A stretch of 35,395 bases of DNA from Kiritimatiellia bacterium (GTDB taxonomy: Bacteria; Verrucomicrobiota; Kiritimatiellia; CAIQIC01; Lenti-01): assembly GCA_017445365.1 (NCBI GenBank), contig JAFSUH010000066.1:1-35395 (forward strand), given 5' to 3'. A program made the translations under genes and the position numbers. How positions within the stretch are numbered: position 1 is the stretch's first letter; every line of letters begins with the position of its first letter. The notes under the pieces were generated by a model. That model searched no databases. It was given only the letters and a program-made list of their open reading frames with translations, and was not told where the DNA came from. Below are positions 978-27,960 of this stretch, one piece after another.

Positions 978-1027
978 TTTGCCAATGTTTGGCAAAAACA
1001 GGCCAATTTTGCCAAACATTGGCAAAA
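978..1027. repeat. Nested palindromic intergenic element, copy 1
   Basis: The first unit (978-997) has arm TTTGCCAA, loop region TGT and arm TTGGCAAAA. A 9-nt spacer, ACAGGCCAA, follows. The second unit (1007-1027) is the reverse complement of the first. Each unit can fold alone as a hairpin of about 9 bp with a 3-nt loop, and the two units can also pair with each other over their full length. The element lies between the stop of the VIT/PEP-CTERM gene (1116) and the start of the thioredoxin-reductase-like gene (846). Confidence 0.9.
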
Positions 1028-1055
1028 CGGCAAAACCGCGCGCGAAACTTGGGGT

Positions 1056-1078
1056 CCCCGGAAAGCTGCTTTCCGGGG
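1056..1078 (-). terminator. GC-rich hairpin downstream of the PEP-CTERM gene
   Basis: Arm CCCCGGAAAG, loop CTG and arm CTTTCCGGGG form a perfect 10-bp stem, 37 bases past the stop codon of the minus-strand PEP-CTERM gene. No U-tract follows it on the minus strand. It is therefore a candidate terminator or 3'-end structure, possibly working with the palindrome at 978-1027. Confidence 0.45.
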
Positions 1079-1115
1079 TTTAGCCGCGCGTCCGCACTTC
1101 TTGCTTCTTCCTTTT

Positions 1116-3926
1116 TTACTTCTTGCTTCGCCCGCGACAGCGGGTGGCCGCCGCAAGCGTGGCGGCGCCGAGGGCGAGCAGGGCGAGGGTCCCCGGCTCG
1201 GGCGTGGCGGTGGAGACGGGCGGCTCCGGCGCGGTTTCGTGGAAATCCAGCGACTTGTCGGCGGCCAGGGCGCGCTTTTCGTCGAGGGTGAGTTCCTTTT
1301 CCTGGATGGTGTTTTCGAGGACGATGCAGGCCGACTGGGTGGTCAGGACGCCGGTTTCGCGGGTTTTCGCCAGCAGTTCGGCGCGGTGGTCTTCGCCCGG
1401 ATAGCGGAACGCCCGCTCCTCGATCTCCCATGCTTTCGCGCCTTCCGCCCACGCGCCGCCGACGGGAGCGGCCCCGGCGAGCCGCGCGAACACGAGGGCG
1501 TCCTGCCCGCGACGCCACGGGACGGGCACGTTCCGTCCGTCGTCGGTCGCCAGGAAGAACCAGCCGTCCAGCGTCTCGTCGCCCAGCCATTCCAGGCCCG
1601 GAAACTCGCGGCGGAGCATCCGCTTTTCGGCGTCGGAGAGCGCGGGTTCGCCCCCGCCGGAAAACGCGACGCGCGGCGTCCCGGCGGAGGGGCCTCCGGT
1701 TTCCAGGCGGCGCCACGCCTGGCGCAGGACCCGCCGCAACTTGCGGGCCAGGTTGGGGTCGGCGGGGTCGAATGCCGTTTCTTCGCCGCCGGGGGCCAGC
1801 TGCACGGCCTCCCCGGCGCGGCCGTCGAACCACGCCGCGGCGATGCGCGTCACCTCCGCACCGTCGGCCGACTGCATGCCCGACGCCGCTTCGCCCGCGC
1901 CTTCGGGCGCGTTGGCGGGAATCCAGCCGGTGCCGTCGCCTTCGTCGGCGATGTCCTTGCGCTGCCAGCGGCCGGTTTCTTCGTTCTTTTCCCAATGCGT
2001 ACGCGACCGCTTCCACTCCGGCACGCGGAACTCCGCGACGGCGGCCGCCGCGCCCGCGGCGGGGAGGCGAACGGCCAGTTCCAGCTCGCGCGAGCCGTCC
2101 GGCGGCACGGGGAACAGGCGGAGGCGGCCTTCGGCGGGCGTATCCATCGTGACGAGGAGGGGGTCCTGGGCGCGCTGGTGGGCGATCTTGAGATAAATCC
2201 ATTCGGCGGCCTTTCGTTCGCTGGCGCGGGCATCCTTCCACCCGCCGCCGGGCATCTTGAGGCGCGCGCCTTCGAGCCACGCGCCGGCGGGGAGCCGGAA
2301 ATCGAGGACGAGCTCCTGGTCGGGGTTCCATTCGGACCCCTCCGGCCGCTCCCGGCCGCGCACCACGATGCCGACGGCATAGCCGCCCGCGCCGTCGCCG
2401 TCCACGCGCGCGACGGCGAAGTCGTCCGTGGGCAGGGGGACGGTGAAGCGCTCTTCCATCCCGCGTCCCCGGGAGGCCGAGAACACGGCCTCGCCCAAAA
2501 AGTTGCGCTTGGCCTTTTCCCAGTCGCGCGGGTCGGCGACCTCCCGGCCGAGGATGCGCCGGTTGAGCGCCTGGCGGAGGGGGTTGGCCATGTGCATCCC
2601 GCCGTACACCCGCCACGTCCGCCACGCCGTCAAAAACGGCGTCTCGACCCCGAAGCGGTAGTCGTTGACCCGCTCCATGATCCGCGCCGCCCGCCGCATC
2701 CCCATCGGTGGCGGGATCTCCGGCTCGTCGAAGTTCTCGCCCGCGTGCCACGCGACGAGGGCCTTGAGCTGCGCGCGTTCGACTTCGATGTCCGCCGCCC
2801 ACAGCGCCGGAAGGAGCAACGCCGCGGCGGCCGCGAGCGCGGCGAGCGGCAATGCGCGGTAGCGTCCGCGCAACGTCCGCCAGCTTTCCGCGATGTCGCG
2901 GCACCAGAACTGGAAGAGCAGGAGCGGTGCCACCATCAAGATGCCCGCTCCCAGGAGCGCCACCGCCCACGGCACGAGCGGCAGGAACGGGAGGAACAGG
3001 AGGAAGAAGTAGAGCACGTACACCCCCACCGCCCAGCGCCCCGCCCACGCCGCCAGCCCCGCCAAGCCCCCGCGCAGCGGCGTCAACATCACCACGCCCG
3101 CCGCCACCGCGATTCCCCACGTCCACGGATTCGCGAAGTCCGCCGGGAACGGAATCTTCAGGTTCAGCGCCAGCCCGCCCAGCGGCAGCGCCAGCCCGAA
3201 CAGAAGCGCCTCGCCGATGCGCCACGCCTCGCGGTGCGGGCCTTCGCGGCGCTTCCGCCCCAACCAATACGAGATGCGCAGCAGCAAAAACAATCCCGCC
3301 AGCGTCCCCAGCACGTAAACCAGCACGCACACCGTCACGAACAATCCGCCCAAGAGAAGCTCGAGGCGATCGAAAAGCTTCCCTCCCCACGATGTCGACA
3401 CCGGCCAGATGCCGAGAGCCAGCGCCAGCACCCCGCCGAGGCCGATTCCCAGCGTCCACAGCCACCAGCGCTTCCCCTTCCGCGCCCCGGCGTCCATCCA
3501 GCGGCCCACGCCCGCGTAAACCATCGGAAGCATGCCCAAGAACACCGAGAATATCCCCATCGGGGTCGGTGCGGCGTCCGGGAGCCCCTCCATCACGCGC
3601 TTCATCGCCGGGAAGAGCCCCCAGAGGAAGGCCACGCCCGCCACCGCGAAGCCCGACATGACCCAGGCGTTCGTTCTCCGCCGACCCGCCGACCGCATCC
3701 AGCCCCAGCACGCCCACCCCAGCGCCGCCAGCAGCAGCGGCACCGCCCACAGACCCAGCGACAGCCATGCCGCCGTCCCATGCACCTCCCCCTTGATCAG
3801 CCACCACTGGTAGAGCATCGCCCCGACGGCGAAGAGGGGGAAGATGCCGTGGGTGGCAAGGAAGGTGGCGGGTCTCTCGAAGAGTCCGCGACCGGGTTGC
3901 GTGGGTTCTCGGGGTTGTCCGTCCAT
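1116..3926 (-). CDS. Multi-pass membrane protein with VIT domain and PEP-CTERM sorting signal
   Basis: 936 aa. The N-terminal part (about residues 25-375) holds roughly ten hydrophobic segments. Residues 535-620 resemble a VIT (vault/inter-alpha-trypsin) domain: LDFRLPAGAWLEGARL, then QRAQDPLL, then RLRLFPVPPDGSRELEL. No VWA domain follows. A segment near 860-890 (TTQSACIVLENTIQEKE) resembles the end region of VIT-type surface proteins. The C-terminus (909-936) is a textbook PEP-CTERM signal: PEPGTLALLALG, a hydrophobic stretch, then a basic RCRGRSKK tail. Such tails are recognised and cleaved by exosortases. The architecture resembles the MSEP-CTERM group of exosortase-associated proteins. 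No exosortase gene is in the window. AAAGG lies about 10 nt before the ATG. The link to the exopolysaccharide operon at 11-18 kb is inference from the known co-occurrence of PEP-CTERM and EPS systems. Confidence 0.85.
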   Translation of the reverse strand: MDGQPREPTQPGRGLFERPATFLATHGIFPLFAVGAMLYQWWLIKGEVHGTAAWLSLGLWAVPLLLAALGWACWGWMRSAGRRRTNAWVMSGFAVAGVAFLWGLFPAMKRVMEGLPDAAPTPMGIFSVFLGMLPMVYAGVGRWMDAGARKGKRWWLWTLGIGLGGVLALALGIWPVSTSWGGKLFDRLELLLGGLFVTVCVLVYVLGTLAGLFLLLRISYWLGRKRREGPHREAWRIGEALLFGLALPLGGLALNLKIPFPADFANPWTWGIAVAAGVVMLTPLRGGLAGLAAWAGRWAVGVYVLYFFLLFLPFLPLVPWAVALLGAGILMVAPLLLFQFWCRDIAESWRTLRGRYRALPLAALAAAAALLLPALWAADIEVERAQLKALVAWHAGENFDEPEIPPPMGMRRAARIMERVNDYRFGVETPFLTAWRTWRVYGGMHMANPLRQALNRRILGREVADPRDWEKAKRNFLGEAVFSASRGRGMEERFTVPLPTDDFAVARVDGDGAGGYAVGIVVRGRERPEGSEWNPDQELVLDFRLPAGAWLEGARLKMPGGGWKDARASERKAAEWIYLKIAHQRAQDPLLVTMDTPAEGRLRLFPVPPDGSRELELAVRLPAAGAAAAVAEFRVPEWKRSRTHWEKNEETGRWQRKDIADEGDGTGWIPANAPEGAGEAASGMQSADGAEVTRIAAAWFDGRAGEAVQLAPGGEETAFDPADPNLARKLRRVLRQAWRRLETGGPSAGTPRVAFSGGGEPALSDAEKRMLRREFPGLEWLGDETLDGWFFLATDDGRNVPVPWRRGQDALVFARLAGAAPVGGAWAEGAKAWEIEERAFRYPGEDHRAELLAKTRETGVLTTQSACIVLENTIQEKELTLDEKRALAADKSLDFHETAPEPPVSTATPEPGTLALLALGAATLAAATRCRGRSKK

Positions 3927-3950
3927 GGGGTCCGCCTTTCAATCCCCCGC

Positions 3951-3979
3951 ATTTTGCCACATCCCGCCGCCGGGCGCAA
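3951..3979 (-). promoter_or_regulatory. Candidate sigma70-type promoter of the PEP-CTERM gene
   Basis: On the minus strand TTGCGC (3974-3979) is followed after 17 nt by CAAAAT (3951-3956), giving a leader of about 20 nt before the ATG at 3926. It sits just downstream of the palindrome at 3997-4047. Both boxes are imperfect, so this is tentative. Confidence 0.35.
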
Positions 3980-3996
3980 TCCGCGCGGCAAGGCGG

Positions 3997-4047
3997 TTTT
4001 GCCAATGTTTGGCAAAATCGGCCCGTTTTTGCCGAACATTGGCAAAA
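3997..4047. repeat. Nested palindromic intergenic element, copy 2
   Basis: The first unit (3997-4017) has arm TTTTGCCAA, loop TGT and arm TTGGCAAAA. The spacer is TCGGCCCGT (9 nt). The second unit (4027-4047) has arm TTTTGCCGA, loop ACA and arm TTGGCAAAA. The element lies 21 nt after the stop codon of the MacB-like permease (4069) and upstream of the PEP-CTERM gene. Unit length and spacer length match the other complete copies. Confidence 0.92.
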
Positions 4048-4068
4048 CGGCCTGCGGGCGCGGCGGGG

Positions 4069-5289
4069 CTATTCGTACCGCAACGCTTCGATCGGGTCCA
4101 AGGCCGCGGCCTTGCGCGCCGGGTAGAAGCCGAAAAAGACGCCGATCGAGCCGCTGAACAGGAACGCCAGCGCCACCGCCCCCGGCTCCACCACCGTGTC
4201 CCAGCCCAGCTGCACGCGCACGAACCACGCGACCGCCACCCCCAGCAGCATGCCGATCAACCCGCCCCCCGCGCTCAGCACCACCGATTCGACCAGGAAC
4301 TGCAGGAGGATGTCCGACCCCTTCGCCCCCACCGCCATGCGAAGCCCGATTTCCTTCGTCCGCTCCGTCACGCTCACCAGCATGATGTTCATGATGCCGA
4401 TGCCGCCGACCAGGAGCGACACGCCCGCGATGGCGCCCAGGAGCACCGTCATCGTGTCGGCGGTGGAGGTGGCCACCTCGCGGATTTCCTGCTGGTCGAG
4501 GAAGCTGAAATCGTCCTCCTTGCCCTCGGCGATGCGGTGGCGCTGGCGGAGGAGGGAGGCGAGTTGTTCGACGACCTCGCCGCTGCGTTCGGCGGATTCG
4601 AGCTGCACGGTGATCGAGCGGAACGTGCTGCCGCCGGTGATGCGGACCATCGCGCTGGTCCAGGGGACGAGGATCATGTCGTCCTGGTCGTCGCCCATCA
4701 TGTTCGCGCCCTTGGGCTTGAGCACGCCGACGACTTCGTACGGCGCGTTCTTGATGCGGACGGTCTGCCCGACGACGCCTTCGGCGCTCCCGAAGAGGTT
4801 GGTGGCGACGGTGTTGCCCAGCAGGGCGACCTTGGCGGCGCGGGCGACGTCGGTGTCGGTGAAATTGGCGCCGTCGGCCAGGGTCCAGACGCGGACGGAA
4901 AGGAAGTCTTCGCTGACGCCGTACACCGTGGTCGAGACGTTCTGCGCGCCGAACGACGCCTGGGCGGTGCCGCGCAGTTCCGGGGTCGCGCCGGTGATGC
5001 CGGAAACTTCGCTGCGGATGGCGGCGTAATCCTTCTTGGTGAGGGTGGGGGCGGAGCCGAAGCCCATGTGCACGCGCCCCTTGCGGGCGGCGCCGGAGAA
5101 GACGAGGAGCACGTTCTGGCCCATCTGGGCGATGTTGCGGGCGACCTGGGCCTTCGCACCGGTGCCGATGGCGATCATCGCGATGACGGCGGCGACGCCG
5201 ATGATCATGCCGAGCATCGTGAGGACCGACCGCATCACGTTCTGCCGGAGGGCGCGCAGGGCCATCATCCAAGTGGCGGAAAACTTCAT
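4069..5289 (-). CDS. MacB/FtsX-type ABC transporter permease
   Basis: 406 aa. An N-terminal membrane segment (about 17-40, VLTMLGMIIGVAAVIAMIAIG) is followed by a large extracytoplasmic MacB_PCD-type domain (about 45-270). The C-terminal FtsX core has three membrane segments and contains GGIGIMNIMLVSVTERTKEIGLRMAVGA, ending YPARKAAALDPIEALRYE. Both motifs are hallmarks of MacB-family permeases, which work by mechanotransmission rather than by a translocation channel. No ATPase is fused to it. The start at 5289 is chosen because AAAGGGAG lies just before it and the product begins MKFSATWMMALRAL as in the family. Its ATG overlaps the stop of the upstream ATPase gene in an ATGA (5286-5289), which suggests translational coupling. 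Family assignment is firm. The substrate is unknown. Confidence 0.93.
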   Translation of the reverse strand: MKFSATWMMALRALRQNVMRSVLTMLGMIIGVAAVIAMIAIGTGAKAQVARNIAQMGQNVLLVFSGAARKGRVHMGFGSAPTLTKKDYAAIRSEVSGITGATPELRGTAQASFGAQNVSTTVYGVSEDFLSVRVWTLADGANFTDTDVARAAKVALLGNTVATNLFGSAEGVVGQTVRIKNAPYEVVGVLKPKGANMMGDDQDDMILVPWTSAMVRITGGSTFRSITVQLESAERSGEVVEQLASLLRQRHRIAEGKEDDFSFLDQQEIREVATSTADTMTVLLGAIAGVSLLVGGIGIMNIMLVSVTERTKEIGLRMAVGAKGSDILLQFLVESVVLSAGGGLIGMLLGVAVAWFVRVQLGWDTVVEPGAVALAFLFSGSIGVFFGFYPARKAAALDPIEALRYE

Positions 5290-6242
5290 GGCTCCCTTTC
5301 TACCGCGTCCGCCCGCGCGAAGGCGAGACAGGAAACGCCGCTCTCCGCCGTCCCCGTCCAGCCGGGGCGGACGGCGGCGCAGGCGGGGCGCGCTTCGGGA
5401 CAGCGCGGGGCGAAGGCGCAACCGGGGTGCGGTTCGGCGGGGGAGGGCGGCTCGCCCGCGAGCGGCCGGAAGGGGCGCTTGGCGCCGAGCACCGGAATCG
5501 AGGCGAGGAGCGCGCGCGTGTACGGGTGCCGCGGGGAAGAGACCACTTCGGCGGAAGGCCCCAGTTCGGCGAGCCGCCCGGCATAGAGCACGCCGATGCG
5601 AGACCAGGCCCGCCGGAGGACGGCGAGGTCGTGCGAGATCACGAGCATCGCGAGATTCCTCTTCGCACGGAGGTCTTCCAGAAGGGCGAGAATCTGCGAC
5701 TGGACGGATACGTCGAGGGCGCTCGTGATTTCGTCGCAGACGAGGAGCGCGGGGCGGAGGAGCAGGGCGCGGGCGATGGCGACGCGCTGTTTCTGGCCGC
5801 CGGAGAGGGAGAAGGGATAGCGGAACAGGAGGTCGCCGGAAAGACCCACTTCTTCGAGCGCCGCCGCGGCGCGCGCTTCGGCCGCGCGGCGGGGGAAATC
5901 GCCGCGGACGAGGGGCGCTTCGGTCACGAGCTCGAAGACGCTCCGGCGCGGGTTGAGGGAGGAGGACGGGTCCTGGAAGACCATCTGCCGCGCGCGGAGG
6001 GGGACGCCGGTGACGGAACCGGCGGCGAGCGGAACGAGGCCGCAGAGGGCGCGGGCGAGGGTGGTCTTGCCGCTGCCGGATTCGCCGGCGAGGCCGAACG
6101 CTTCGCCGGGGGCGATGGCGAAGGAGACGCCGTCGACGGCGCGCACGCGGCCGGTGGCGCGGGCGAAAACGCCGCGGCGGACGGGGAAATCCACGACGGC
6201 GTCTCGCAGGGCGAGGACGGGAGCTGGGAGGGGCGGAACCAC
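5286..6242 (-). CDS. OppF/DppF-type ABC transporter ATPase
   Basis: 318 aa from a GTG at 6242. Walker A is GESGSGKTT, the Q-loop is MVFQDPSSSLNPR, the signature is LSGGQKQRVAIARALL, and the H-loop is VISHDL. Walker B reads LLVCDEITSALD, with Ile where the family has Pro (DEPTSALD) but the catalytic Glu kept. The C-terminal extension contains the oligo_HPY region (RHPYTRALLASIP) and a Cys cluster GCAFAPRCPEARPAC with a later Cys, typical of oligopeptide-transporter ATPases. No OppABCD partners are nearby. Instead the gene overlaps a MacB-type permease by 4 bp, which is an unusual pairing. No Shine-Dalgarno is evident, and a promoter-like sequence ends about 7 nt before the GTG. It may serve peptide import with distant subunits, or an undescribed hybrid transporter. 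Confidence 0.92.
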   Translation of the reverse strand: MVPPLPAPVLALRDAVVDFPVRRGVFARATGRVRAVDGVSFAIAPGEAFGLAGESGSGKTTLARALCGLVPLAAGSVTGVPLRARQMVFQDPSSSLNPRRSVFELVTEAPLVRGDFPRRAAEARAAAALEEVGLSGDLLFRYPFSLSGGQKQRVAIARALLLRPALLVCDEITSALDVSVQSQILALLEDLRAKRNLAMLVISHDLAVLRRAWSRIGVLYAGRLAELGPSAEVVSSPRHPYTRALLASIPVLGAKRPFRPLAGEPPSPAEPHPGCAFAPRCPEARPACAAVRPGWTGTAESGVSCLAFARADAVEREP

Positions 6243-7175: not shown

Positions 7176-7238
7176 GCGGCGACTTTCGCCGATTCCCCCG
7201 CGGAAGGCAAGCAACGCGCCGCCGGGGCAAAATTACGC

Positions 7239-7266
7239 TTGCATCGGGGCGCGGGACGGCTAGGAT
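7239..7266 (+). promoter_or_regulatory. Candidate promoter of tRNA-Leu
   Basis: Plus strand: TTGCAT (7239-7244), 16-nt spacer, TAGGAT (7261-7266). Predicted initiation is about 28 nt before the mature tRNA 5' end at 7301, a usual length for a trimmed tRNA leader. Confidence 0.55.
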
Positions 7267-7300
7267 ACGCCGTGTCAACCACGAGTTTGGTCTGCAAGGT

Positions 7301-7385
<85 letters not shown>

Positions 7386-7422
7386 ACTTTTTCCGGCGGA
7401 CGCTTTCCGGCGCCCGCCTTCT

Positions 7423-11304: not shown

Positions 11305-11354
11305 TTTTGCCGATGTTCGGCAAAAATGGCCCGATTTTGCCAAACATTGGCAAA
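11305..11354. repeat. Nested palindromic intergenic element, copy 3
   Basis: The first unit (11305-11325) has arm TTTTGCCGA, loop TGT and arm TCGGCAAAA. Compared with copies 1, 2 and 4 it shows a paired A-to-G and T-to-C change that keeps the within-unit stem. The 9-nt spacer is ATGGCCCGA. The second unit (11335-11354) has arm TTTTGCCAA, loop ACA and arm TTGGCAAA. It lies between the glycosyltransferase stop and the response-regulator start. Confidence 0.92.
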
Positions 11355-11420
11355 GGGTTGTTCGACCCTTTGCTTGCAGGGCCTCCGCTTTGCACGGCCC
11401 CGCTTCCGCCTCCATGCGCA

Positions 11421-11441
11421 TTTTGCCGACTACCGGCAAAA
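11421..11441. repeat. Solo 21-nt unit of the palindromic element
   Basis: Arm TTTTGCCG, centre ACTAC, arm CGGCAAAA: exactly 21 nt, like one half of the 51-bp element, without a partner. It lies 23 nt after the stop codon of the glycosyltransferase gene, where the complete copies lie relative to other genes. Confidence 0.75.
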
Positions 11442-11464: not shown

Positions 11465-12913
11465 TCAACCTTCGGGGGCGGTGGCGTCCGCGAGGCGCTG
11501 TTCCTTCGCCATGCTTTCGTCGTCTTCGTGGTGGAGGCCGGCCGCGATCGTGTACACCGTTTGCAGGGCGATCGCCGCGTCCAGCAAAAGCGACATGTTT
11601 TTCATGTAGAACAGGTCGTATTCCAGCTTCGTCCGCGTCGCTTCCAGGCTCGCCGCGTAGGGAGCCTTCACCTGCGCCCATCCCGTCAACCCCGGCGGAA
11701 CTTCCGTCCGTTCGCCGTAGAACGGGATTTCCTTCTCCAGCGCCGCCGTGAACTCCGGCCGCTCCGGCCGGGGGCCGACGATGCTCATCTCGCCCTTGAG
11801 GATGTTGAAAACCTGCGGGATTTCGTCCAGGCGGAACTTGCGCAACCAGTACCCCACCCGCGTGACGCGGTTGTCCGCCGCCCCCGCCCACACCGCGCCG
11901 TCCTTTTCCGCGTCGGGCCGCATGCTCCGGATCTTGTAGAGCGTGAACGGCTTCTTCCCCCGCCCCACGCGCACCTGTCGGTAGAACACCGGTCCGCGGT
12001 CCTCGAGCTTGACGGCAAGCGCGCAGAGGGCCATCAGCGGCAATCCGGGCACCAGCGCAAGCAACGCGAAAAAGACGTCCGCGGCGCGCTTGAGGTTGCG
12101 GACGTGGATGAGGGACGAATTCATCGCCGCGTCCACGAGCCACGTTTCGTTCACGTATTTGAGGGGAATCCGTCCGAAGAGGATTTCGCTCAGGGCGATG
12201 CCGTCGACGATTTCGACGCCCGCGTACCGCAAGCGGCGGAGCGGCGAGAGGATGTGCGGCGCTTCCGCGATGGGCGTTTCGAGCAGGATGCAGCTGACCG
12301 GGCGGGCCTTTGCGACGGTTTCGACGTCGGCGGCGCGGCCGAGGACGGGAAGCCCCAGGCATTCGCGCGGCAAGGGCACGCCCGGCACGGGATTGGCGAG
12401 CAGGATCCCCTCCACGTGGAAGGGCGAAAGCGCCCCGCGCAGCGCGCGCACCAGTTCGCCGTTCGCTTCCGGGTCGTGCGTGACGAGGTAGGCGGAGCGT
12501 TGGAGGAAGCCGTAGTGCAGCGCCAGGAGGAAGACGCGGCGGACGAGGAAGGAAAAGACGAGCATCAGCCCCGCCGCGAGAATCCACACGCCGCGGCCGA
12601 TCTGCGAGACGGGCCGCGCGTAGAAAACAAGCCCCGTCACCGCGACGGCGGCCAGGTTGGCCACGAGCGTCGCGGCACGGCGGTGGTTGGCGCGCGAGAC
12701 CGCGTACAGCCCCGCCGCGTAGAAGCTCAGGAGGTAGACGAAAAGGCTGCCGATCGCCGTGAAAAGGTGGGAGAGCAGGTAGTCGAGCCATTCGGCGGCG
12801 CCGAAGCGGATCCAGATGGCGAGCAGGTGCGCCGAAGCAAGGCAAACGACATCGCAGAGGACGAGGACGACGCGCTTGCGGCTCAACCGCGACAAACCGG
12901 AGGGACCGGCCAT
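11465..12913 (-). CDS. Polyprenyl glycosylphosphotransferase (exopolysaccharide initiating enzyme)
   Basis: 482 aa. It likely transfers a sugar-1-phosphate to undecaprenyl phosphate at the inner membrane, the first step of exopolysaccharide repeat-unit assembly. Four membrane segments lie in the first 130 residues, followed by a cytoplasmic nucleotide-binding-like domain. The bacterial sugar transferase domain lies at about 282-470. Its hallmarks are the membrane hairpin plus KLEDRGPVFYRQVRVGRGKKPFTLYKIRSM, the LRKFRLDEIPQVFNILKGEMSIVGPRPERPEF core, and PGLTGWAQV. The architecture is that of WcaJ/EpsZ-type enzymes. It is the last gene of the five-gene operon, 3 bp after the Wzc-like gene. The sugar is not predictable. 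Confidence 0.93.
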   Translation of the reverse strand: MAGPSGLSRLSRKRVVLVLCDVVCLASAHLLAIWIRFGAAEWLDYLLSHLFTAIGSLFVYLLSFYAAGLYAVSRANHRRAATLVANLAAVAVTGLVFYARPVSQIGRGVWILAAGLMLVFSFLVRRVFLLALHYGFLQRSAYLVTHDPEANGELVRALRGALSPFHVEGILLANPVPGVPLPRECLGLPVLGRAADVETVAKARPVSCILLETPIAEAPHILSPLRRLRYAGVEIVDGIALSEILFGRIPLKYVNETWLVDAAMNSSLIHVRNLKRAADVFFALLALVPGLPLMALCALAVKLEDRGPVFYRQVRVGRGKKPFTLYKIRSMRPDAEKDGAVWAGAADNRVTRVGYWLRKFRLDEIPQVFNILKGEMSIVGPRPERPEFTAALEKEIPFYGERTEVPPGLTGWAQVKAPYAASLEATRTKLEYDLFYMKNMSLLLDAAIALQTVYTIAAGLHHEDDESMAKEQRLADATAPEG

Positions 12914-12916
12914 CCG

Positions 12917-15238
12917 TCAGGCTTCCCCGTCCGCGGACGGCGGCGGGACGCCTTCCGGCGCGGCGCCGGCGGCCGGTTGCCCGCCGGACGCGCCGTAGGC
13001 ACCGGCCGTGGCCTCGTCGGTGGAAGCGTACCGGTAGTCGTAGCCGTAGTAGTGGTAGTAGCTCGAATACCCGTAGGAGGAAATGCGCGTCAGGTCGAGC
13101 TTGTTGAGAATGACGCCCAGGACGTTCGCCCCGCGGACGAGCAATTGGCGGACCGACGTGCGCAGGAGCTTCTGGCTGGTCCGCCCCGCCCACACGACGA
13201 AGAGCGTCGCATCCGCCTTCGAGGCGATGACGGCCGCTTCGGAGATGACCATCGTCGGCGGTGCGTCGACGATCACGAGGTCGTACCGCTCCTTCGCCGC
13301 GGCGAGGAACGCGTCGAAGGCGTTCTGCATGACCAGTTCGGCCGGATTGTCGGGGAACGCGCCCGTCGCGATGAAGGAAAGGCCCGGGACCGTGGCGATT
13401 TCCTGGGTCACCTCTTCCGCCGTCTTGCGGCCGGAAAGGATGTCGCTCAACCCCCACCCGGCGTTGACGTGCAACTGGTGGTGGAGCATGCCGCGGTGAA
13501 GGTCGCCGTCGACGAGCAGGACCCGGCTTCCCGCCTGCGCGAAGCAGACCGCGAGGTTGATGGACGTCGTCGTCTTCCCTTCCTGCGGGACGGCGCTGGT
13601 GACGGCGACGACCTTGCTCGCGGCGGAATCGGGATCGAGGAGGAGGGCGCTCCTGACGTTGCGGTACGCCTCCGCGAAACCGCTGGTCGGGTCGATGTCG
13701 AGGAGCAGGCTGGTGTTCTTCCCGTGCCGGTCGCGCGCCGCCGCCGGGATGAGGCCGATGAAGGGGACGCCGAGCGCGCGGGAAACTTCTTCCGGGTAGC
13801 GGATGGAGTCGTCGATCAGGTCGAGGAGGAAGACCAGCGCGAGCCCCATGCCGATGCCGACGAGCGCCGCGAGGAAGAGCATCTGCATGTTCTGCGCGTT
13901 GACCGGGGCCGTGGGCACCTGCGCGCTCTCGATGATGCGGACGCTCTCCTGGTCGATGCCAGCGGAGATGTCCACTTCCTTCAGGCGGTTGAAAATGAGG
14001 TCGTAGAGCTTCTGCGAACGGTCGATGTTGCGCTTGAGCCCGTCGTACGCCTTCTGCTTGCGGTCGATTTCGAGCGCCTCGTCCTCCCATGCCTGCTCGA
14101 CGCGCTTGGCCGCGCGCTCGCGGATGGTGAGGGCCTCCAGCTGCGAGTAGTACTGCTTCAAGGCGAACTGGATTTCGACCTTGAGGGCGTCCTCGTTCTC
14201 CTGCAGCTTGCGGAGCGTTTCCTGGATGAGCGGGTGGGCGTCCTTGTATTTCTTCCGGTAGTTCGCGAGCTGCGCTTCCAGCATCGCGTTCTCGCGCTTG
14301 AGGTCGCCCCAGCGCGGCTGGGAAACGACATCGTGCTCGATCAGGCTTTCCGCGTCGGACGCGCCCGCGGGGGCGGCGCCGGCCGCGTCCGCCCCGCCGC
14401 CCGGGGCGGCGGCCTGCGCGGGCAGGGGCTGGAGGACCGCGCCGTATCCCAAGGTGGCGAGAATCGCGTCGTCGCTCGCCTGGTTGAGCAGGGGCTGCTG
14501 GGCTTCCAGCAGCATCCGTTCGGTCTTGAACTTCGCCGCCTGCTTGGAGAGGTCGCCCAGCAGTTCCGCGGCGACGTTGCCCCTCTCGTCGATGCCCACC
14601 ACGCGGTTTTCGCGGACGAACGCGAGCATGTCGTCTTCGAGGCGGGCGATTTCGCCGTTCAGCCGCTCCGCCTGCTGGGAGAGGTTGACGATGGTGTTGC
14701 GCGAGGAGTCGCTCCGCTCGACGGCCTTGTACTCGACGAAGGCCTCGGCGATGGCGTTGGCGTAGTCGGAAGCGAACTCCGGCTCGTAGGCCGTCACGCG
14801 GATGAAGAGAATGGCGGTTTCCCAGAGGACGTCGACGAGCAGGGAATCGTATTTGCGCGAGAACTGCTCCGGCGAAAGGCCCAGTTTCGCCTTCGCCGCC
14901 TCGATCACGTCGCGCGAAAGGAGCAGTTGCCGCTGGGTGTAGAGGTAGCTTCCGAGAACGTTTTCCCGGTTCTGGAGGGCGGCGGGCAATCCCCCCGGCT
15001 GGACCAGGTGGATGTGCGCTTCGCTCGCGTATTTCGGGACCTGCCGCGCCATGCGGACGAGCGCGAACCCCACCGCGACGGCGAAGCAGAGGAGCACCAG
15101 CCACAGGCGCCGGACGACGAGGAAGAGGTAGCGGCGGATGTCGAAGACCTTGCGGGGAAAACCCGACGGCACGGCCGGCGCGGAAGCGGGGGAAGCCGCG
15201 GCGGCGGAAGAAGCGGGCGGGTCGAACATGTCGCGCAT
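12917..15238 (-). CDS. Wzc-like polysaccharide co-polymerase and tyrosine autokinase
   Basis: 773 aa from the ATG at 15238, chosen because GGAGGG lies 10 nt upstream and it starts 4 bp after the Wza-like stop. An in-frame ATG at 15289 would overlap that gene. An N-terminal Wzz domain with its first membrane segment follows a Pro/Ala-rich cytoplasmic start. A long periplasmic coiled-coil region comes next, then the second membrane segment (MLFLAALVGIGMGLALVFLL). The BY-kinase domain has Walker A SAVPQEGKTTT (about 548), Walker A' VLLVDGDLHRG (about 573) and Walker B LVIVDAPP (about 654). The tail has a Tyr-rich cluster YGYSSYYHYYGYDYRY (about 722-737), the autophosphorylation sites of this family, then a Gly/Ala/Pro-rich end. 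It controls chain length and export together with the Wza-like protein. Confidence 0.95.
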   Translation of the reverse strand: MRDMFDPPASSAAAASPASAPAVPSGFPRKVFDIRRYLFLVVRRLWLVLLCFAVAVGFALVRMARQVPKYASEAHIHLVQPGGLPAALQNRENVLGSYLYTQRQLLLSRDVIEAAKAKLGLSPEQFSRKYDSLLVDVLWETAILFIRVTAYEPEFASDYANAIAEAFVEYKAVERSDSSRNTIVNLSQQAERLNGEIARLEDDMLAFVRENRVVGIDERGNVAAELLGDLSKQAAKFKTERMLLEAQQPLLNQASDDAILATLGYGAVLQPLPAQAAAPGGGADAAGAAPAGASDAESLIEHDVVSQPRWGDLKRENAMLEAQLANYRKKYKDAHPLIQETLRKLQENEDALKVEIQFALKQYYSQLEALTIRERAAKRVEQAWEDEALEIDRKQKAYDGLKRNIDRSQKLYDLIFNRLKEVDISAGIDQESVRIIESAQVPTAPVNAQNMQMLFLAALVGIGMGLALVFLLDLIDDSIRYPEEVSRALGVPFIGLIPAAARDRHGKNTSLLLDIDPTSGFAEAYRNVRSALLLDPDSAASKVVAVTSAVPQEGKTTTSINLAVCFAQAGSRVLLVDGDLHRGMLHHQLHVNAGWGLSDILSGRKTAEEVTQEIATVPGLSFIATGAFPDNPAELVMQNAFDAFLAAAKERYDLVIVDAPPTMVISEAAVIASKADATLFVVWAGRTSQKLLRTSVRQLLVRGANVLGVILNKLDLTRISSYGYSSYYHYYGYDYRYASTDEATAGAYGASGGQPAAGAAPEGVPPPSADGEA

Positions 15239-23159: not shown

Positions 23160-23479
23160 GGGCCGGCGGCCGGCGCGGCCTGCGAGAGCGTTTCGAGGAC
23201 CGGCGTCGTGAAGGCCCAGATGCCGGTGAGGGAATCCGCTTCGTTTTTGAGCTTCTGGAGCTTGGCCATCGCCGAGGCGACTTTCCCTTCGTCCGCGACG
23301 GCGAGGTAGACCGCGTTCGCGCCCGGCCAGACGTGGTCGTCGAGCCTTGCGCCGCTGCCCGGCCCCTCCCCTGTCAGCCGCGGCCAGCGCGTGTACGCGG
23401 CAATCCCCGCTTCCGCGAGGAGCGTTTTCACCTTTCCGTCGAGCACCATGTCGAAAGCAATCCACAACGCTTTTTCCAT
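23147..23479 (-). CDS. PG0541-family small protein linked to RND transporter
   Basis: 110 aa from the ATG at 23479, with AAGGAG 6 nt upstream. Soluble, with a PII-like beta-alpha-beta pattern: KALWIAFDMVLDGKVKTLLAEAGIAAYTRWPRLTGEGPGSG, then HVWPGANAVYLAVADEGKVASAMAKLQKLK. The YTRW, GxG and HxWPGxN pattern fits the PG0541 group of small proteins encoded beside RND efflux pumps, mostly in anaerobes, whose role is unknown. It lies 17 bp after the RND permease gene as the last gene of that operon. Its stop codon lies inside the end of the convergent flavoprotein gene. Confidence 0.85.
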   Translation of the reverse strand: MEKALWIAFDMVLDGKVKTLLAEAGIAAYTRWPRLTGEGPGSGARLDDHVWPGANAVYLAVADEGKVASAMAKLQKLKNEADSLTGIWAFTTPVLETLSQAAPAAGPHKS

Positions 23480-23496
23480 CTTCCGCTCCTTCCTTC

Positions 23497-26400
23497 TCAC
23501 GCGGCCTTTTCCGCCGCCTTTTTTCCGCCGCGGCCCCGGTGGGCCAGCGAGTAGAGCACCGGCACCAGCACGAGCGTCACGAACATCGCGAAGAGCAGCC
23601 CGCCCGCCACGGTCGCTCCCATCGGCCGCCACATCGCCGAACCTTCCCCGCGCGAAAACACCATCGGCGACATCCCCGCCACGCTCGAAAGGGTCGTGAT
23701 GAGCACCGGCCGCAGGCGCGAGCGGCCCGCCTCCACGATCGCTTCCTCCACCGCCTTCCCCCGCGCGCGCAACAAGCCGATGAAGTCGATGAGGACAATC
23801 GCGTTGTTCACCACCACGCCCACGAGCATGATCATGCCGATGAAGCTCATCATGTTGATGGTGAGTCCCAGCAGCTTCAGCGACACCGCCACCCCCGTGA
23901 ACGCGAAGGGAATCGAGAACATGATGAGGAGCGGGTCGAGGAGGCTTTCGAACTGCGAGGCCATCACCATGTAGACCAGCAAAATCCCCAGTGCCATCAT
24001 CAGCTGCATCTCCCCGAAGGTGTCCGCCTGGTCCTCCGCCGTGCCGCCGAAATGGACCGCCACCCCTTCCGGCAGGGCCACCTCGCGGGCGATGCGCGCG
24101 CGCAAGTCGCCCACCACCTCGCCGGCGGACCGCCCGAACACGTCGGCCTCCACCTTGACCATGCGCTCCTGGTTCTTCCGGTCGATGGAAAGCGGTCCGG
24201 TCCGCTCGACGACGTTCGCGACGGACGAAAGGCGGATGCGCTTGCCGCCGGAGGTGGCGATTTCGCTGCTTTCGAGGTCGGCGACGGAGCGGCGGAACGG
24301 CTCGTCCAAGCGCAGCAGCACGTCGTACTCGTCGTCGTCCTCGCGGAATTCGGTCGCGGTCGCGCCGTAGAAGAGCGTGCGCATCCCTTGCGCGATTTGA
24401 CTTGTGTTCAGCCCGTGCGCCGCGGCCTTGACCCGGTCGATTTCGACGTGGATTTCCGGCCGCCCCTTTTCGCGGGAAACGTTCACGTCCACCGCGCCGG
24501 GCGTGGAGCGGACGATGGCGGCGATTTCCTCGGCGGTGCTTTCGAGCTTTTCCAGATCGAATCCCAGCACCTCGACGGAAACCGGCTTTCCGCCGCCCCC
24601 CGGTCCGTTCCCGCCGCCGGAGACGGACACCTTGACCAGTTCCGGCCAGTCCTTGACGCGGTCCGCGGCGGCGCGGCCGACGGCCTTGGCGGTGACGGAG
24701 CGGAGGGTGGGGCTGACGAGGCGCAACTGGATTTGCCCGGCATGCGAGCCTTCGCCGGAGCCGCCGCCCCCGCCGCTGCCGGCGCGGATCGAATGGCTTT
24801 TGACGATGTCGCCGTGCCTGGCGGCCTCTTCCAGGGCAACGGCCAGCACGTCGCGGCAGCGGTTCATGGTTTCTTCGAGGCGGGTGCCGACGGCGGTTTC
24901 GATCTTGATGGTCAGCCGGTCGGAGTCGTCTTCCGGCGAGTACTCGCTTCCCAGTCCGAAGAAGATCCACGCGCCGCCGCCGAGGAGCGCGAGAAGGAGG
25001 GCGATGACCGGCAGGCGGTGCCGCAGGGCGGCGGCGAGGAGCCGCGCGTAGCGCGCGTCCACCGCGTCGAACGCCTTCCCCAAGGCGTCGGCGAGGCGCG
25101 TGGCGGACGCGAACGCGGGCTTTTGCGAGGCGGGCCGCAACAGCTTGCTCGAAAGCATCGGGGTCAGCCACAGCGCGCAGACCATGCTCGCCAAGAGCGT
25201 CGCCGTCAGGAGCCCCCCCAGCTGCGTGAACATGATGCCGGCCTCGCCGGTGAGGAAGATGAGCGGGACGAAGACCACGATGGTGGTCAAGGTCGAAGCG
25301 AAAATCGCGGTCGTCACCTCTTCGCTGCCGAACATCGCGGCCTCGCGCGGGGCGACGCCGCGCTCGACTTTTTTGGAGATGTTTTCGAGGACGACCACCG
25401 CGTTGTCGACGACCATGCCGATGGCGACGGCGAGCGAGGACATCGAAATGATGTTGATGGTCCACCCCATCGCGTAGAGGAAAATCACCGCGGCGACGAG
25501 GGAAAAGGGTATCGTCAGCGCGACGATGAGGCTTGTCCGGAACGAGCGGAGGAACAGCCAGGTGACCAGGACCACGAAGACGAGCCCCCACTTGACGGCG
25601 CCGGTGACGTTGGCGATGGAGGAGACGATGTCGTGGGACGTGTCGGCGTACAGGTGGAACTCGATGTCGCGCGGGAGCGTCGGCTTGATGCGTTCGAGTT
25701 CCCCCGTCACTTCGCGGGCGACGGCGACCGTGTTCGCGCCGGAGCGCTTCTGGATCATCATGACGAGCCCCCGCTTGCCCATGGTCTCGGTTTCGGCGGT
25801 TTTTTCCTCGAAGCCGTCCTCGACCGCGGCGATGTCGCGCAAATAGAGATATTTGCCGTCCCGGTTGCGCAGGACGACGTTTTCCATTTCTTCGGGCGTG
25901 GCGTATTCGCCGGGGACCCGGAGCGAATAGTCCACGATGCCGACCTTGAGGTTTCCCGCCGGGAGCGTGACGTTTTCCGCGGCGAGGGCGGCGGAAACTT
26001 CGTCCAAGGTGATGCCGTATCCGCGCAGTTTCGCCGGGTCGAGCAACACGTGGATTTCCCGTTGGTAGCCGCCGAAGATGTTGACGGTGCCCACGCCGGG
26101 CAGGCGCTTCAAGGGGTCGGCGACGCGCTCGTCGATGATGTCGTAGAGCCGCTCGATGCTTTCGACCGCGGTGACGCCGTAGAACTGGATGGGGATCTGC
26201 GTGGTGTCGAACTTCATGATGCGCGGTTCGTCCGCGTCGTCGGGGAGGGAGTTGGCGACGCGGTCGAGGGCGCTGCGCACGTCGTTGCTCGCCTCGTCGA
26301 GGTTGCTGCCCCAGTTGAACTCGCAGGTGATGCGGCTCTGGCCCTCCTTGGTGGTGGAGGTCATTTCCTTCAAGTTGTTGACGCTGCCCAAGGCGCGTTC

Positions 26401-26601
26401 GAGGAGCTTGGTGACGCGGGTTTCGACGTCTTCGGTGGAAGCGCCGCTCCAGGTGGTGACGATGGTGACCTGGGGGTTGTCGATTTCGGGGAGGTAGTCC
26501 ACGGAAAGGCGCGTGTACATGACGCAGCCGATGACGAGGACGGCGAGGAAGAACATGAGCGTCGTGACGGGACGCCGGACGCCTAGGGCGGAAAGGTTCA
26601 T
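23497..26601 (-). CDS. RND efflux permease, HAE1/AcrB-like
   Basis: 1034 aa, standard length for the inner-membrane proton-driven pump. The N-terminus is MNLSALGVRRPVTTLMFFLAVLVIGCVMYTRLSVDYLPEIDNPQVTIVTTWSGAS. The two sets of six membrane segments and two large periplasmic loops expected of the family are visible. TM4 carries the acidic proton-relay motif in SLAVAIGMVVDNAVVVLENI. The second half has MSFIGMIMLVGVVVNNAIVLIDFIGLLRARG. The periplasmic part includes a Gly-rich loop (AGSGGGGGSGEGSHAG). It pairs with the upstream membrane fusion protein (22-bp gap). No TolC-like outer-membrane gene is in the window. Substrate unknown. Confidence 0.97.
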   Translation of the reverse strand: MNLSALGVRRPVTTLMFFLAVLVIGCVMYTRLSVDYLPEIDNPQVTIVTTWSGASTEDVETRVTKLLERALGSVNNLKEMTSTTKEGQSRITCEFNWGSNLDEASNDVRSALDRVANSLPDDADEPRIMKFDTTQIPIQFYGVTAVESIERLYDIIDERVADPLKRLPGVGTVNIFGGYQREIHVLLDPAKLRGYGITLDEVSAALAAENVTLPAGNLKVGIVDYSLRVPGEYATPEEMENVVLRNRDGKYLYLRDIAAVEDGFEEKTAETETMGKRGLVMMIQKRSGANTVAVAREVTGELERIKPTLPRDIEFHLYADTSHDIVSSIANVTGAVKWGLVFVVLVTWLFLRSFRTSLIVALTIPFSLVAAVIFLYAMGWTINIISMSSLAVAIGMVVDNAVVVLENISKKVERGVAPREAAMFGSEEVTTAIFASTLTTIVVFVPLIFLTGEAGIMFTQLGGLLTATLLASMVCALWLTPMLSSKLLRPASQKPAFASATRLADALGKAFDAVDARYARLLAAALRHRLPVIALLLALLGGGAWIFFGLGSEYSPEDDSDRLTIKIETAVGTRLEETMNRCRDVLAVALEEAARHGDIVKSHSIRAGSGGGGGSGEGSHAGQIQLRLVSPTLRSVTAKAVGRAAADRVKDWPELVKVSVSGGGNGPGGGGKPVSVEVLGFDLEKLESTAEEIAAIVRSTPGAVDVNVSREKGRPEIHVEIDRVKAAAHGLNTSQIAQGMRTLFYGATATEFREDDDEYDVLLRLDEPFRRSVADLESSEIATSGGKRIRLSSVANVVERTGPLSIDRKNQERMVKVEADVFGRSAGEVVGDLRARIAREVALPEGVAVHFGGTAEDQADTFGEMQLMMALGILLVYMVMASQFESLLDPLLIMFSIPFAFTGVAVSLKLLGLTINMMSFIGMIMLVGVVVNNAIVLIDFIGLLRARGKAVEEAIVEAGRSRLRPVLITTLSSVAGMSPMVFSRGEGSAMWRPMGATVAGGLLFAMFVTLVLVPVLYSLAHRGRGGKKAAEKAA

Positions 26602-26623
26602 GCGGGGTTTCCTTCGGGGGGGC

Positions 26624-27817
26624 TCAGGGAACGCTGTTTTTCTGTTCGTTTTCGCTTGACGTTTCCGCGGCCCCTTCCGCGCCGTGCGCCCCGGCCACGG
26701 AGACGGGCACGCCGTCGGTGAGCTTGTTCTGCCCCATGACGACGTAGGTCTCGCCCGCCGCGAGCCCCGAAAGGATTTCCACGCGGTCGCCGGAGCGGAT
26801 GCCGGTGACGACGTCCCGCGCGCGGGCGGTGCCGTCTTCCACGACGAAGAGGATGCGCCGCTCGAACACCCGCGTCAGCGCCGAAGCCGGCACGGCGAGC
26901 ACGTCCTTGCGCGAGACGAGCGTGGCCGACGCGGTCGCGTACATGCCGGGGCGCAGCAGCCAGTCGCCGTTCTCCGTCCGCTCGTTTTCGAGGAGCACTT
27001 CCGCCGTCGCCGTGCGCGTGGCCGTGTCCACCGTCGGCCACACGCGCGAGACGGTGCAGTCGAACGTGCGCCCGGGGACCGCGTCGAGCGCGACCGAAAC
27101 CGCCGTCTGCCGGGCGCGTACGAGCGGAAGCAGCCGGTCGGGAACGGCAATCACCAGCTTCAGCGGCGTCATTTCGACAATGCGGACAACCGGCGTGGAG
27201 GCGGAGAGCATGCTGCCGGGGTCCACGTAGCGTCGGGCGACGACGCCGTCCATGGGCGAGACGATGAAGGCGTTTTCGAGGTTGACGCGCGCGAGCTGGA
27301 GTTGCGCCTGCGCCTGCGCGAGGGAGGCCTTGGCGGATTCGTGGGCGGTGGCGGCGGCGTCGCGGGCCTGTTCGGTGGCGACCTCTTCGGCGAAGAGGGC
27401 TTCGATGCGGCGGCGTTCGCGTTCCTTTTCGGCGAGGGTGACTTCGGCGGACTGGACCTGGGCGCCGGCGAGGGAGACCTGCGCTTCGAGTTCGCCGGTG
27501 TCGAGGACGCCGAGGCGCTGGCCGTTGGTGACGGCGGTGCCTTCGAGGAGGGGGACCCGGCGGCCTTCGACGGTGGCGTAGAGCTTTTCGAGGCGGCCGG
27601 AAAGCTTGCTGGCGACCTCGACGGTGCGGAGGGACTCGAGTTCGCCGGTGAAGGAGAGGATTTCGTCGATGTCGGACGGGGCGGCGACGGCGGTGCGGAC
27701 GGCGACGGGCGGGAGGGAGGACGGGGCGGAGGGCCCGCCCTCCGGTGCGGAGGGGGAACAGGCCGCGAGGAGGAGGGAAACGGGCAGGGCGATTGCGGGA
27801 AAAAGGAAATGTTTCAT
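26624..27817 (-). CDS. RND efflux membrane fusion (periplasmic adaptor) lipoprotein
   Basis: 397 aa. The signal peptide ends in lipobox LAAC (Cys20), so it is a lipoprotein like AcrA. The biotinyl-lipoyl half-motifs are SFTGELESLRTVEVASKLSGRLEKLY and ARVNLENAFIVSPMDGVVARRYVDPGSML, which flank an alpha-hairpin (about 110-180, Ala/Gln/Glu-rich: LAGAQVQSAEVTLAEKERERRRIEALFAEEV). Beta-barrel and membrane-proximal domains follow, ending GQNKLTDGVPVSV. GGAAAG precedes the ATG at 27817. It is the first gene of the three-gene RND operon. Confidence 0.96.
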   Translation of the reverse strand: MKHFLFPAIALPVSLLLAACSPSAPEGGPSAPSSLPPVAVRTAVAAPSDIDEILSFTGELESLRTVEVASKLSGRLEKLYATVEGRRVPLLEGTAVTNGQRLGVLDTGELEAQVSLAGAQVQSAEVTLAEKERERRRIEALFAEEVATEQARDAAATAHESAKASLAQAQAQLQLARVNLENAFIVSPMDGVVARRYVDPGSMLSASTPVVRIVEMTPLKLVIAVPDRLLPLVRARQTAVSVALDAVPGRTFDCTVSRVWPTVDTATRTATAEVLLENERTENGDWLLRPGMYATASATLVSRKDVLAVPASALTRVFERRILFVVEDGTARARDVVTGIRSGDRVEILSGLAAGETYVVMGQNKLTDGVPVSVAGAHGAEGAAETSSENEQKNSVP

Positions 27818-27849
27818 CGTCTTTTCTTTCCACCGGAGGGGACGGCGCC

Positions 27850-27879
27850 TTTCTACCAAACCCCCGCCGCCGCCTTCAA
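27850..27879 (-). promoter_or_regulatory. Candidate promoter of the RND operon
   Basis: Minus strand: TTGAAG (27874-27879), 18-nt spacer, TAGAAA (27850-27855). The leader to the ATG at 27817 would be about 25-30 nt and contains the Shine-Dalgarno GGAAAG. The -35 box is the same TTGAAG as at 6272-6277. Confidence 0.45.
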
Positions 27880-27909
27880 GCCGCGCCGCCAGGGGGGCGT
27901 TCCCGCCCG

Positions 27910-27960
27910 TTTTGCCAATGTTTGGCAAATCCGCCTGAAATTTGCCGAACATTGGCAAAA
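27910..27960. repeat. Nested palindromic intergenic element, copy 4
   Basis: The first unit (27910-27930) has arm TTTTGCCAA, loop TGT and arm TTGGCAAAT. The 9-nt spacer is CCGCCTGAA. The second unit (27940-27960) has arm ATTTGCCGA, loop ACA and arm TTGGCAAAA. The terminal bases of the two inner arms have changed together (A-to-T and T-to-A). It lies 27 nt after the stop codon of the Ig-domain protein gene and upstream of the RND operon promoter. Confidence 0.9.

What the first reader, a model, noticed from the sequence alone, without database searches (positions are those of the whole stretch)
978..27960. Dispersed family of 51-bp nested palindromes with fixed 21-9-21 architecture
Four complete copies (978-1027, 3997-4047, 11305-11354, 27910-27960) have the same design: a 21-nt palindromic unit (20 in copy 1's first and copy 3's second), a 9-nt GC-rich spacer, and a second unit that is the reverse complement of the first. 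Every copy sits between the stop of one minus-strand gene and the start of the next, often 20-30 nt after the stop. In copy 3 both arms of the first unit changed together (A-to-G, T-to-C), which preserves the within-unit hairpin. In copies 2 and 4 the second unit instead carries one change that gives G-U on the plus strand. The element can fold as two small hairpins or one long 21-bp hairpin. The seen facts are position, length and symmetry. A role as 3'-end, mRNA-stability or protein-binding element (REP-like) is inference. I know of no named family with this exact layout.
Basis: seen in the sequence. Interest (0 to 1): 0.85.

Follow-up and report, generated by a model that had tools for sequence, protein, structure and literature searches.

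The report
Genome-wide phased intergenic palindrome arrays
A short mirror-image DNA word, mostly set in pairs about three DNA turns apart, fills many gaps between genes of this uncultured Kiritimatiellae-type bacterium, and relatives carry the same layout in their own spelling, which points to an unknown DNA-binding or DNA-copying protein.

Summary
The four copies belong to a family with 417 exact units and 198 exact pairs in a 2.3-Mb, 66%-complete MAG; the pair is absent from 344 other genomes of its class. In a 668-kb sample, 55 of 57 placed clusters are intergenic and 75 of 109 neighbour gaps are exactly 30 bp; pairs also join into 4- and 6-unit arrays through a shared 23-24-nt linker. Relatives (Kiritimatiellae/Lentisphaerae-labelled MAGs) carry the same palindrome spelled TTTTCC-N7-GGAAAA, up to 718 per genome, mostly 22 or 30-32 bp apart, with centres that differ between genomes.

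The RNA/hairpin reading is not supported: halves of a unit vary almost independently, long-hairpin pairing is no better than between shuffled pairs, and G-U is not significantly preferred over A-C on transcripts. RAYT genes are generally not flanked by the units (one own RAYT gene has a single off-centre relative behind it), and RAYT number does not track units.

I favour double-stranded sites of an unknown protein, spread as copied cassettes. Verdict: a REP/BIME-like family that fails tests for RAYT-linked REP/REPINs; a new variant of a known kind. Protein unknown; function inferred.

The parts
977..1027 (.). Copy 1: two palindromic units (977-997, 1007-1027) with 9-nt spacer; first unit lacks the outermost pair
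3997..4047 (.). Copy 2: two 21-nt units with 9-nt spacer; second unit has one asymmetric change (position 8/14)
3981..4063 (.). Copy 2 with its GC-rich outer arms; arms 3981-4021 and 4023-4063 are 83% complementary over 41 nt
   Evidence: inverted repeat I8
11305..11355 (.). Copy 3: two units with 9-nt spacer; first unit has G and C at positions 8 and 14; second lacks the outermost pair
11421..11441 (.). Degenerate single unit of the same family, 116 bp after the first unit of copy 3
27910..27960 (.). Copy 4: two units with 9-nt spacer; both units lack the outermost pair

Best explanation
A REP/BIME-like family of dispersed intergenic palindrome arrays, widespread in one order of Kiritimatiellae-type bacteria. 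Each 21-bp unit is most likely a double-stranded DNA site with two inverted half-sites (TTTTGCCRA here, TTTTCCA in relatives) for a symmetric, probably dimeric, sequence-specific DNA-binding protein that is not yet identified. Units are set near whole helical turns (22, 30-32, rarely 42 bp; here 30 and 44-45, together 74-75), so that neighbouring dimers sit on nearly the same face and could bind together. The arrays spread as copied cassettes (shared linkers and arms). The change of spelling between genera would follow a change in the protein. Shown here: copy number, intergenic position, spacing, half-site conservation with next to no covariation, shared linkers, dialects, presence/absence between relatives. 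Inferred: the protein, cooperative binding, and any function (for example separating transcription or supercoiling between convergent genes; BIME-2 elements are reported to bind gyrase, passage in PMC2817692).
For: Copy number and specificity: 417 units own, at most 5 in each of 55 relatives; 198 pairs own, 0 in 344 others. Relatives' form: unit in 37 of 56 genomes (own included), up to 718, reversed-pattern control at most 1 per genome; pair in 52 of 345 genomes (own included), control 0. Spacing: own 30 bp (75) and 44-45 bp (20) of 109 gaps. In relatives' stretches 22 (9), 30-33 (65), 42 (1) of 79 gaps. In named loci, of 132 neighbour gaps other than the exact pairs searched for, 64 are 21-22 and 57 are 30-33; 150 different spacers at spacing 31, searched pairs included. 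Half-sites: pairwise identity 0.82-0.84 in units, 0.97 in TTTGCC, 0.42 in the 9-nt spacer, 0.27 random. Next to no covariation. Shared linker in 4- and 6-unit arrays. Dialects. Core half-sites kept while centres differ at orthologous sites (L118/L165, L199/L256). 13 of 15 arrays one-directional in two MAGs. More clusters between convergent genes: 17 for 36 gaps against 38 for 223 others, p = 0.0002.
Against: No protein was found; the MAG is 66% complete. Own spacings (30, 44-45) are less well phased (2.86, 4.2 turns) than the relatives'. Matching between the halves of a unit is about 2 sd above permutation (7.81 against 7.72 +/- 0.05), mostly in the outer three T/A positions (2.42 against 2.36 +/- 0.03), and 55 of 1000 permutations reach the long-hairpin outer-arm value: weak traces of pairing. 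The sample favours stretches with elements, and the detection pattern favours conserved cores. Conserved units with diverged spacers are also expected if the units are only transposase sites of a selfish repeat. Fixed linkers can come from copying rather than phasing. The 51-53 and 62-63 gaps may be 22+31 and 31+31 with a lost unit. The convergent excess was not seen in the G017 sample.
Confidence: 0.45

Rival explanations
1. Selfish miniature repeats (MITE-like): the units are binding sites of a transposase or recombinase of unknown type acting in trans; no host function.
For: Shared linkers and arms among dispersed copies; a unit-bearing stretch of 137 nt at L126:7322-7458 where L226, 83-90% identical around it, has 3 nt; an array in L219 where the aligned gap of L129 has no unit; large differences in number between genera.
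Against: No target-site duplication visible at L126/L226. In 7 of 16 aligned locus pairs (5 sites) the same gap holds units in both genomes. No such transposase identified.
Confidence: 0.25
2. REP/REPIN proper: single-stranded hairpins moved by a RAYT (Y1 HUH) transposase in trans.
For: Layout like REPIN doublets. The own genome has two Y1_Tnp proteins of 339 and 328 aa. One of them (contig C110) is followed, 20 nt after its stop, by a single palindrome with the same outer core, TTTTGCC-GGGGGCG-GGCAAAA; it is 1 of 145 such core palindromes in the sample and its centre is unlike the others. Weak traces of pairing.
Against: That palindrome is on one side only, and the other own RAYT gene (C42) has its nearest arrays 2.9 kb upstream and 1.0 kb downstream with a gene between. 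Both own RAYT genes instead have another palindrome, GGGGACAGACCCC or its complement, about 45 nt before the start; it occurs 3 times in the 668-kb sample. Of 30 Y1 loci (own C42 among them; up to 1.5 kb flank held), 3 contain a unit-like match, each over 1 kb from the Y1 match. RAYT and unit numbers: rho = -0.28, p = 0.25, 19 genomes; G003 has 72 units and no Y1 match, G001 has 6 Y1 matches and 10 units. No GTAG/CGTC tag.
Confidence: 0.15
3. RNA 3'-end element (terminator, mRNA-stabilising hairpin).
For: Each window copy folds as one long RNA hairpin, z = -3.8 to -7.1. In tandem gaps the element is nearer the stop in 18 of 28, p = 0.18. Median distance to the stop is 13-39 nt in 6 of 8 relatives' samples (3 and 67 in the others; some rest on one or two clusters). 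Transcript-strand G-U against A-C leans to G-U in own tandem gaps, 28 to 18. Some copies lie just after terminator-like GC hairpins.
Against: That lean is not significant (p = 0.18) and is 19 to 21 in relatives (p = 0.87). No long-hairpin covariation overall. Ten of 55 intergenic clusters lie between divergent genes. The unit ends in A's, not U's, on both strands. In two MAGs 7 of 8 arrays in tandem gaps face against the genes, which puts C-A on the mRNA for units with the GG centre.
Confidence: 0.1
4. DNA-uptake signal sequence.
For: Genome-wide repeated word with lineage dialects.
Against: The half-site word outside units is hardly enriched in genes: 35 genic copies against about 24 for permuted words; 30 intergenic against 7, as expected of decayed units.
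Confidence: 0.02

Closest known systems
REP / BIME elements (PMC2817692 and PMC3733652, passages seen)
   Same: Short palindromes, hundreds of copies, extragenic, grouped in regularly spaced arrays
   Different: No GTAG/CGTC tag; RAYT genes here are not delimited by two of them; half-sites vary almost independently; in two MAGs most arrays have all units pointing one way rather than alternating
REPINs (PMC3116915, passages seen)
   Same: Doublet with a poorly conserved spacer of nearly fixed length
   Different: The paper reports common compensatory changes and proximity to RAYTs; here next to none of the first and little of the second; spacer 9 nt; arrays of 4-7 units occur
GTAG repeats of O. 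terrae, Verrucomicrobia (PMC3733652, passages seen)
   Same: Abundant palindromic repeats in the same superphylum
   Different: GTAG-tagged; the text has 0 occurrences of TTTTTCCA
Dispersed palindromic sites of chromosome-organising proteins such as Noc and MatP (recalled, no call)
   Same: Many short palindromic duplex sites
   Different: Other sequences, and not phased intergenic arrays, as far as I recall

Membership tests
REP (RAYT-associated) | More than 100 short extragenic palindromes per genome | tested here: met
   417 units; 55 of 57 placed clusters intergenic in the sample
REP (RAYT-associated) | GTAG or CGTC tag at one end | tested here: not met
   Outward flank positions 1-4 over 131 flanks: C or T (0.87), G (0.66), C or G (0.83), C (0.50)
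REP (RAYT-associated) | RAYT gene delimited by two inverted REPs | tested here: not met
   No unit-like match within 1 kb of the Y1 match in the DNA held for 30 Y1 loci; own C42 not flanked. Own C110 has one off-centre palindrome with the same outer core on one side only. The MAG is incomplete, so a cognate gene may be missing
REPIN | Doublet of inverted palindromes with a spacer | tested here: inconclusive
   Doublets abound (77 pairs at 29-30 bp in the sample), but the units are near-symmetric; centres read TGT then ACA in 28 of 77 pairs, ACA-ACA in 13, TGT-TGT in 6, others in 30
REPIN | Compensatory changes that keep the hairpin | tested here: not met
   Long-hairpin matches 17.30 observed against 17.37 permuted; outer arm 8.05 against 7.95, reached by 55 of 1000 permutations
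BIME | Regularly spaced palindromes in alternating orientation | tested here: inconclusive
   Regular spacing and shared linkers met; orientation alternates in part of the own pairs, and 13 of 15 arrays are one-directional
MITE | Terminal inverted repeats and target-site duplication | tested here: inconclusive
   Inverted GC-rich arms in part of the copies; no duplication visible at L126/L226
Intrinsic terminator | GC-rich hairpin followed by a U run on the transcribed strand | tested here: not met
   Window 700-4300: 4 terminator-like sites against 3.8 in shuffles; one is unit 1 of copy 2 on the + strand, none is at copies 1 or 2 on the gene (-) strand; copies 3 and 4 not scanned
Known structured RNA | Match to an Rfam family | tested here: not met
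   0 matches at gathering cut-off in 95,395 bases (window, L123, L131, L285)
DNA-uptake sequence | Over-represented also inside genes | tested here: not met
   35 genic half-site words outside units against about 24 for permuted words

The most novel reading that the evidence does not exclude
A lineage-wide, genome-scale set of duplex operators for an undescribed sequence-specific DNA-binding protein, arranged in helically phased arrays whose spelling changes in concert across a genome (dialects) while sites and spacing are kept: a protein-site co-evolution system unlike RAYT-REP.
Probability: 0.3. Interest if true: 0.85.

Novelty: new variant of a known kind. Interest (0 to 1): 0.62.

Why it matters
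REP-type repeats are usually explained by RAYT transposases and hairpins. Here is an abundant REP-like family in a poorly known bacterial class that lacks the tag, the delimited RAYT gene and the covariation, but keeps half-sites and near-helical spacing across genera with different spelling. That makes a direct test possible of whether extragenic palindromes can be duplex protein sites with a co-evolving partner, and gives one motif per genus with which to fish for that partner.

Tried and rejected
RNA hairpin selection: covariation, long-hairpin pairing and G-U/A-C tests gave nothing significant for it apart from a small within-unit excess of about 2 sd. RAYT: position and copy number mostly negative. 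Uptake word: negative. Flank complementarity specific to each copy (insertion into terminator loops): left and right flanks of one copy are no more complementary than flanks of different copies (13.86 against 13.88, 65 clusters); the arms are a shared feature instead. Functional theme of neighbours: Pfam on 10 flanking genes gave 7 with unrelated families and 3 with none. Viral contigs: 0 for the own pair pattern. Named genomes: 0 for the own strict pair (the own record may be left out there). Literature searches: no listed title or abstract start describes this element; one search covered the letters and listed 15 of 143 papers, none on bacteria of this group by title; only open-licence papers are held.

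Rows dropped: hits with 2-3 mismatches without a good neighbour at about 30 or 44 bp were left out. Clusters at contig ends (9 of 66) were left out of the position counts. In one search the relatives' clusters inside called genes are 10 (8 in G020, 1 in G005, 1 in G017). In one search, 7 of 16 locus pairs are aligned on one flank only, or are weak or unclear, and were counted for neither side; 3 of the 7 conserved pairs are the same site.
Full report
Observation. The four copies are in the window as described, with small corrections. The core 17-mer, up to 3 mismatches, occurs 8 times against 0.05 expected. The window is contig C236 of a 2,325,113-base MAG, 65.8% complete. That genome holds 417 exact units and 198 exact pairs. 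Its kinship is inferred: members of its family are named Kiritimatiellae, Lentisphaerae or Verrucomicrobia MAGs (for example L123 of G004 equals L218, L113 of G009 equals L221 over 8000 nt).

Specificity. The same unit occurs at most 5 times in each of 55 relatives. The exact pair is absent from the 344 other genomes of the class that were searched, from viral contigs in the pattern used, and, in its strictest spelling, from named GTDB genomes (where the own record may be left out).

Anatomy. In 668,066 bases of the own genome (window plus 60 stretches, partly chosen for hits) there are 66 clusters with 175 units. Neighbour gaps are 30 (75), 29 (2), 44-45 (20), others (12) of 109. Single pairs at 30 bp are the commonest form (27 of 66); 11 are solo units. 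Arrays of pair-linker-pair use a 23-24-nt linker that is plainly related between most copies. GC-rich arms flank part of the copies (GCGCGGC outward in 35 of 109 flanks of multi-unit clusters, 2 of 22 of solo ones). Pairwise identity is 0.82-0.84 in units, 0.97 in TTTGCC, 0.42 in the spacer; the detection pattern favours conserved cores.

Position. With a home-made codon-model gene finder (482 genes), of 57 placed clusters 28 are tandem, 17 convergent, 10 divergent and 2 inside a called gene. Clusters are commoner between convergent genes, 17 for 36 gaps of at least 30 bp against 38 for 223 (Fisher p = 0.0002). Tandem copies are nearer the stop in 18 of 28 (p = 0.18).

Hairpin tests. The halves of a unit vary almost independently: positions 8/14 are AT 76, AC 40, GT 34, GC 25 (p = 0.32). 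Matches within units are 7.81 of 9 observed against 7.72 +/- 0.05 in permutations (largest of 1000: 7.86), a slight excess that sits mostly in the outer three positions (2.42 against 2.36 +/- 0.03). Long-hairpin matching is 17.30 against 17.37, with the outer arm at 8.05 against 7.95 +/- 0.06. On the transcript strand of tandem genes G-U/A-C is 28/18 (own, p = 0.18) and 19/21 (relatives, p = 0.87). Single copies do fold well as RNA (z -3.8 to -7.1), as near-palindromes should.

Relatives. A search for neighbouring palindromes in relatives' stretches found the same layout with other letters in five of the six relatives sampled at that point (G002, G003, G004, G005, G009; not G001). The unit TTTTCCA-N5-TGGAAAA is present in 37 of 56 genomes (own included; up to 718, reversed-pattern control at most 1 per genome), and the pair in 52 of 345 genomes of the class (control 0), among them 25 of the 28 genomes of the own order (own included). 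Within the own order G001, G023 and G027 have no such pair. Own consensus TTTTGCC-AATGTTT-GGCAAAA differs from a relatives' form with the same centre (seen in G018 and G022) by one symmetric letter per half. Commonest centres differ by genome.

Spacing. Relatives' stretches: 22 (9), 30 (5), 31 (35), 32 (24), 33 (1), 42 (1), others 4 of 79. Named loci: 132 neighbour gaps outside the searched exact pairs, 64 at 21-22, 57 at 30-33, 11 at 42-66; 150 different spacers at 31. These lie near whole turns of B-DNA (10.5 bp, recalled). The own 30 and 44-45 are less well phased, their sum of 74-75 well. Phase concentration of the 75 gaps outside 28-34 was R = 0.93 at 10.5 bp (0.96 at 10.0), but it rests mainly on one value, 22.

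Turnover. Of 16 aligned locus pairs of relatives, 7 (5 sites) hold units at the same gap in both genomes, mostly with different numbers; 2 (L126/L226, L129/L219) hold them in one only at a gap aligned on both sides; 7 are unclear. At L118/L165 and L199/L256 the half-sites are kept while centres differ. In two MAGs, 13 of 15 arrays are one-directional and 7 of 8 in tandem gaps face against the genes (small numbers).

RAYT. The own genome has two Y1_Tnp genes. Of 30 Y1 loci with up to 1.5 kb flank, none has a unit-like match within 1 kb of the Y1 match, and 3 have one further off. Numbers do not correlate (rho -0.28, p = 0.25, 19 genomes, own counted with its own spelling). Against my reading, the C110 gene is followed, 20 nt after its stop, by one TTTTGCC-N7-GGCAAAA palindrome with an unlike centre, GGGGGCG. 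In the sample 127 core palindromes have the usual centre and 18 another, of which this is the least like the family. Both own RAYT genes have a different palindrome, GGGGACAGACCCC or its complement, about 45 nt before the start, out of 3 exact copies in the sample; it is in 1 of the 30 Y1 loci (the own one). I read that as the likelier RAYT-linked repeat, but this is an inference from two genes.

Interpretation. What is conserved is the half-site and the distance, much more than the pairing. I therefore favour duplex protein sites, spread as cassettes, over an RNA or single-strand hairpin. That a protein binds, that binding is cooperative and that it matters to the cell are inferences. A selfish repeat with an unknown transposase is the main rival and explains turnover and shared linkers equally well.

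Known kinds. It works like REP/BIME elements as far as layout goes, but three features of the RAYT-linked families (tag, delimited RAYT gene, compensatory changes) were tested and not met. I found no description in the held literature (listings, and passages of three papers).

Noticed in passing
L046:7556-7568 and L047:9001-9013: Palindrome GGGGACAGACCCC / GGGGTCTGTCCCC lies about 45 nt before both own RAYT-like genes; 3 exact copies in the 668-kb sample: a candidate for the true RAYT-linked repeat.
   Followed up: partly
L047:10060-10091: A 12-bp-stem hairpin TTGGCTTTTGCC-N7-GGCAAAAGCCAA lies just after the own RAYT gene of contig C110; same outer core as the units, other centre.
   Followed up: partly
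L172 (own contig C18), 1408-1647: The own MAG has 20 units (8 pairs) of the relatives' TTTTCC spelling, none with its usual centre in my 668-kb sample; L172 is 87.5% identical to L278 over 200 nt around the array: mis-binned contig or transferred cassette.
   Followed up: partly
L016-L045: Relatives carry up to 17 Y1_Tnp matches per genome, many in open frames of about 330-370 aa, not linked to these palindromes.
   Followed up: partly
L061:6600-6640, L093:6690-6731, L052:19071-19111: Some elements lie immediately after a GC hairpin with a T run that looks like a terminator.
   Followed up: no
window 11465-15238: Polysaccharide genes: a sugar transferase and a Wzz/tyrosine-kinase-like protein; copy 3 lies between the sugar transferase gene and a LuxR-type response regulator gene.
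   Followed up: no
window 1116-3926: 936-aa protein with a C-terminal PEP-CTERM-like motif just below the Pfam cut-off (20.6 of 20.7 bits).
   Followed up: no
window 7301-7385: tRNA-Leu (gag) on the + strand by ARAGORN, while Rfam at gathering cut-off listed nothing in the window.
   Followed up: no
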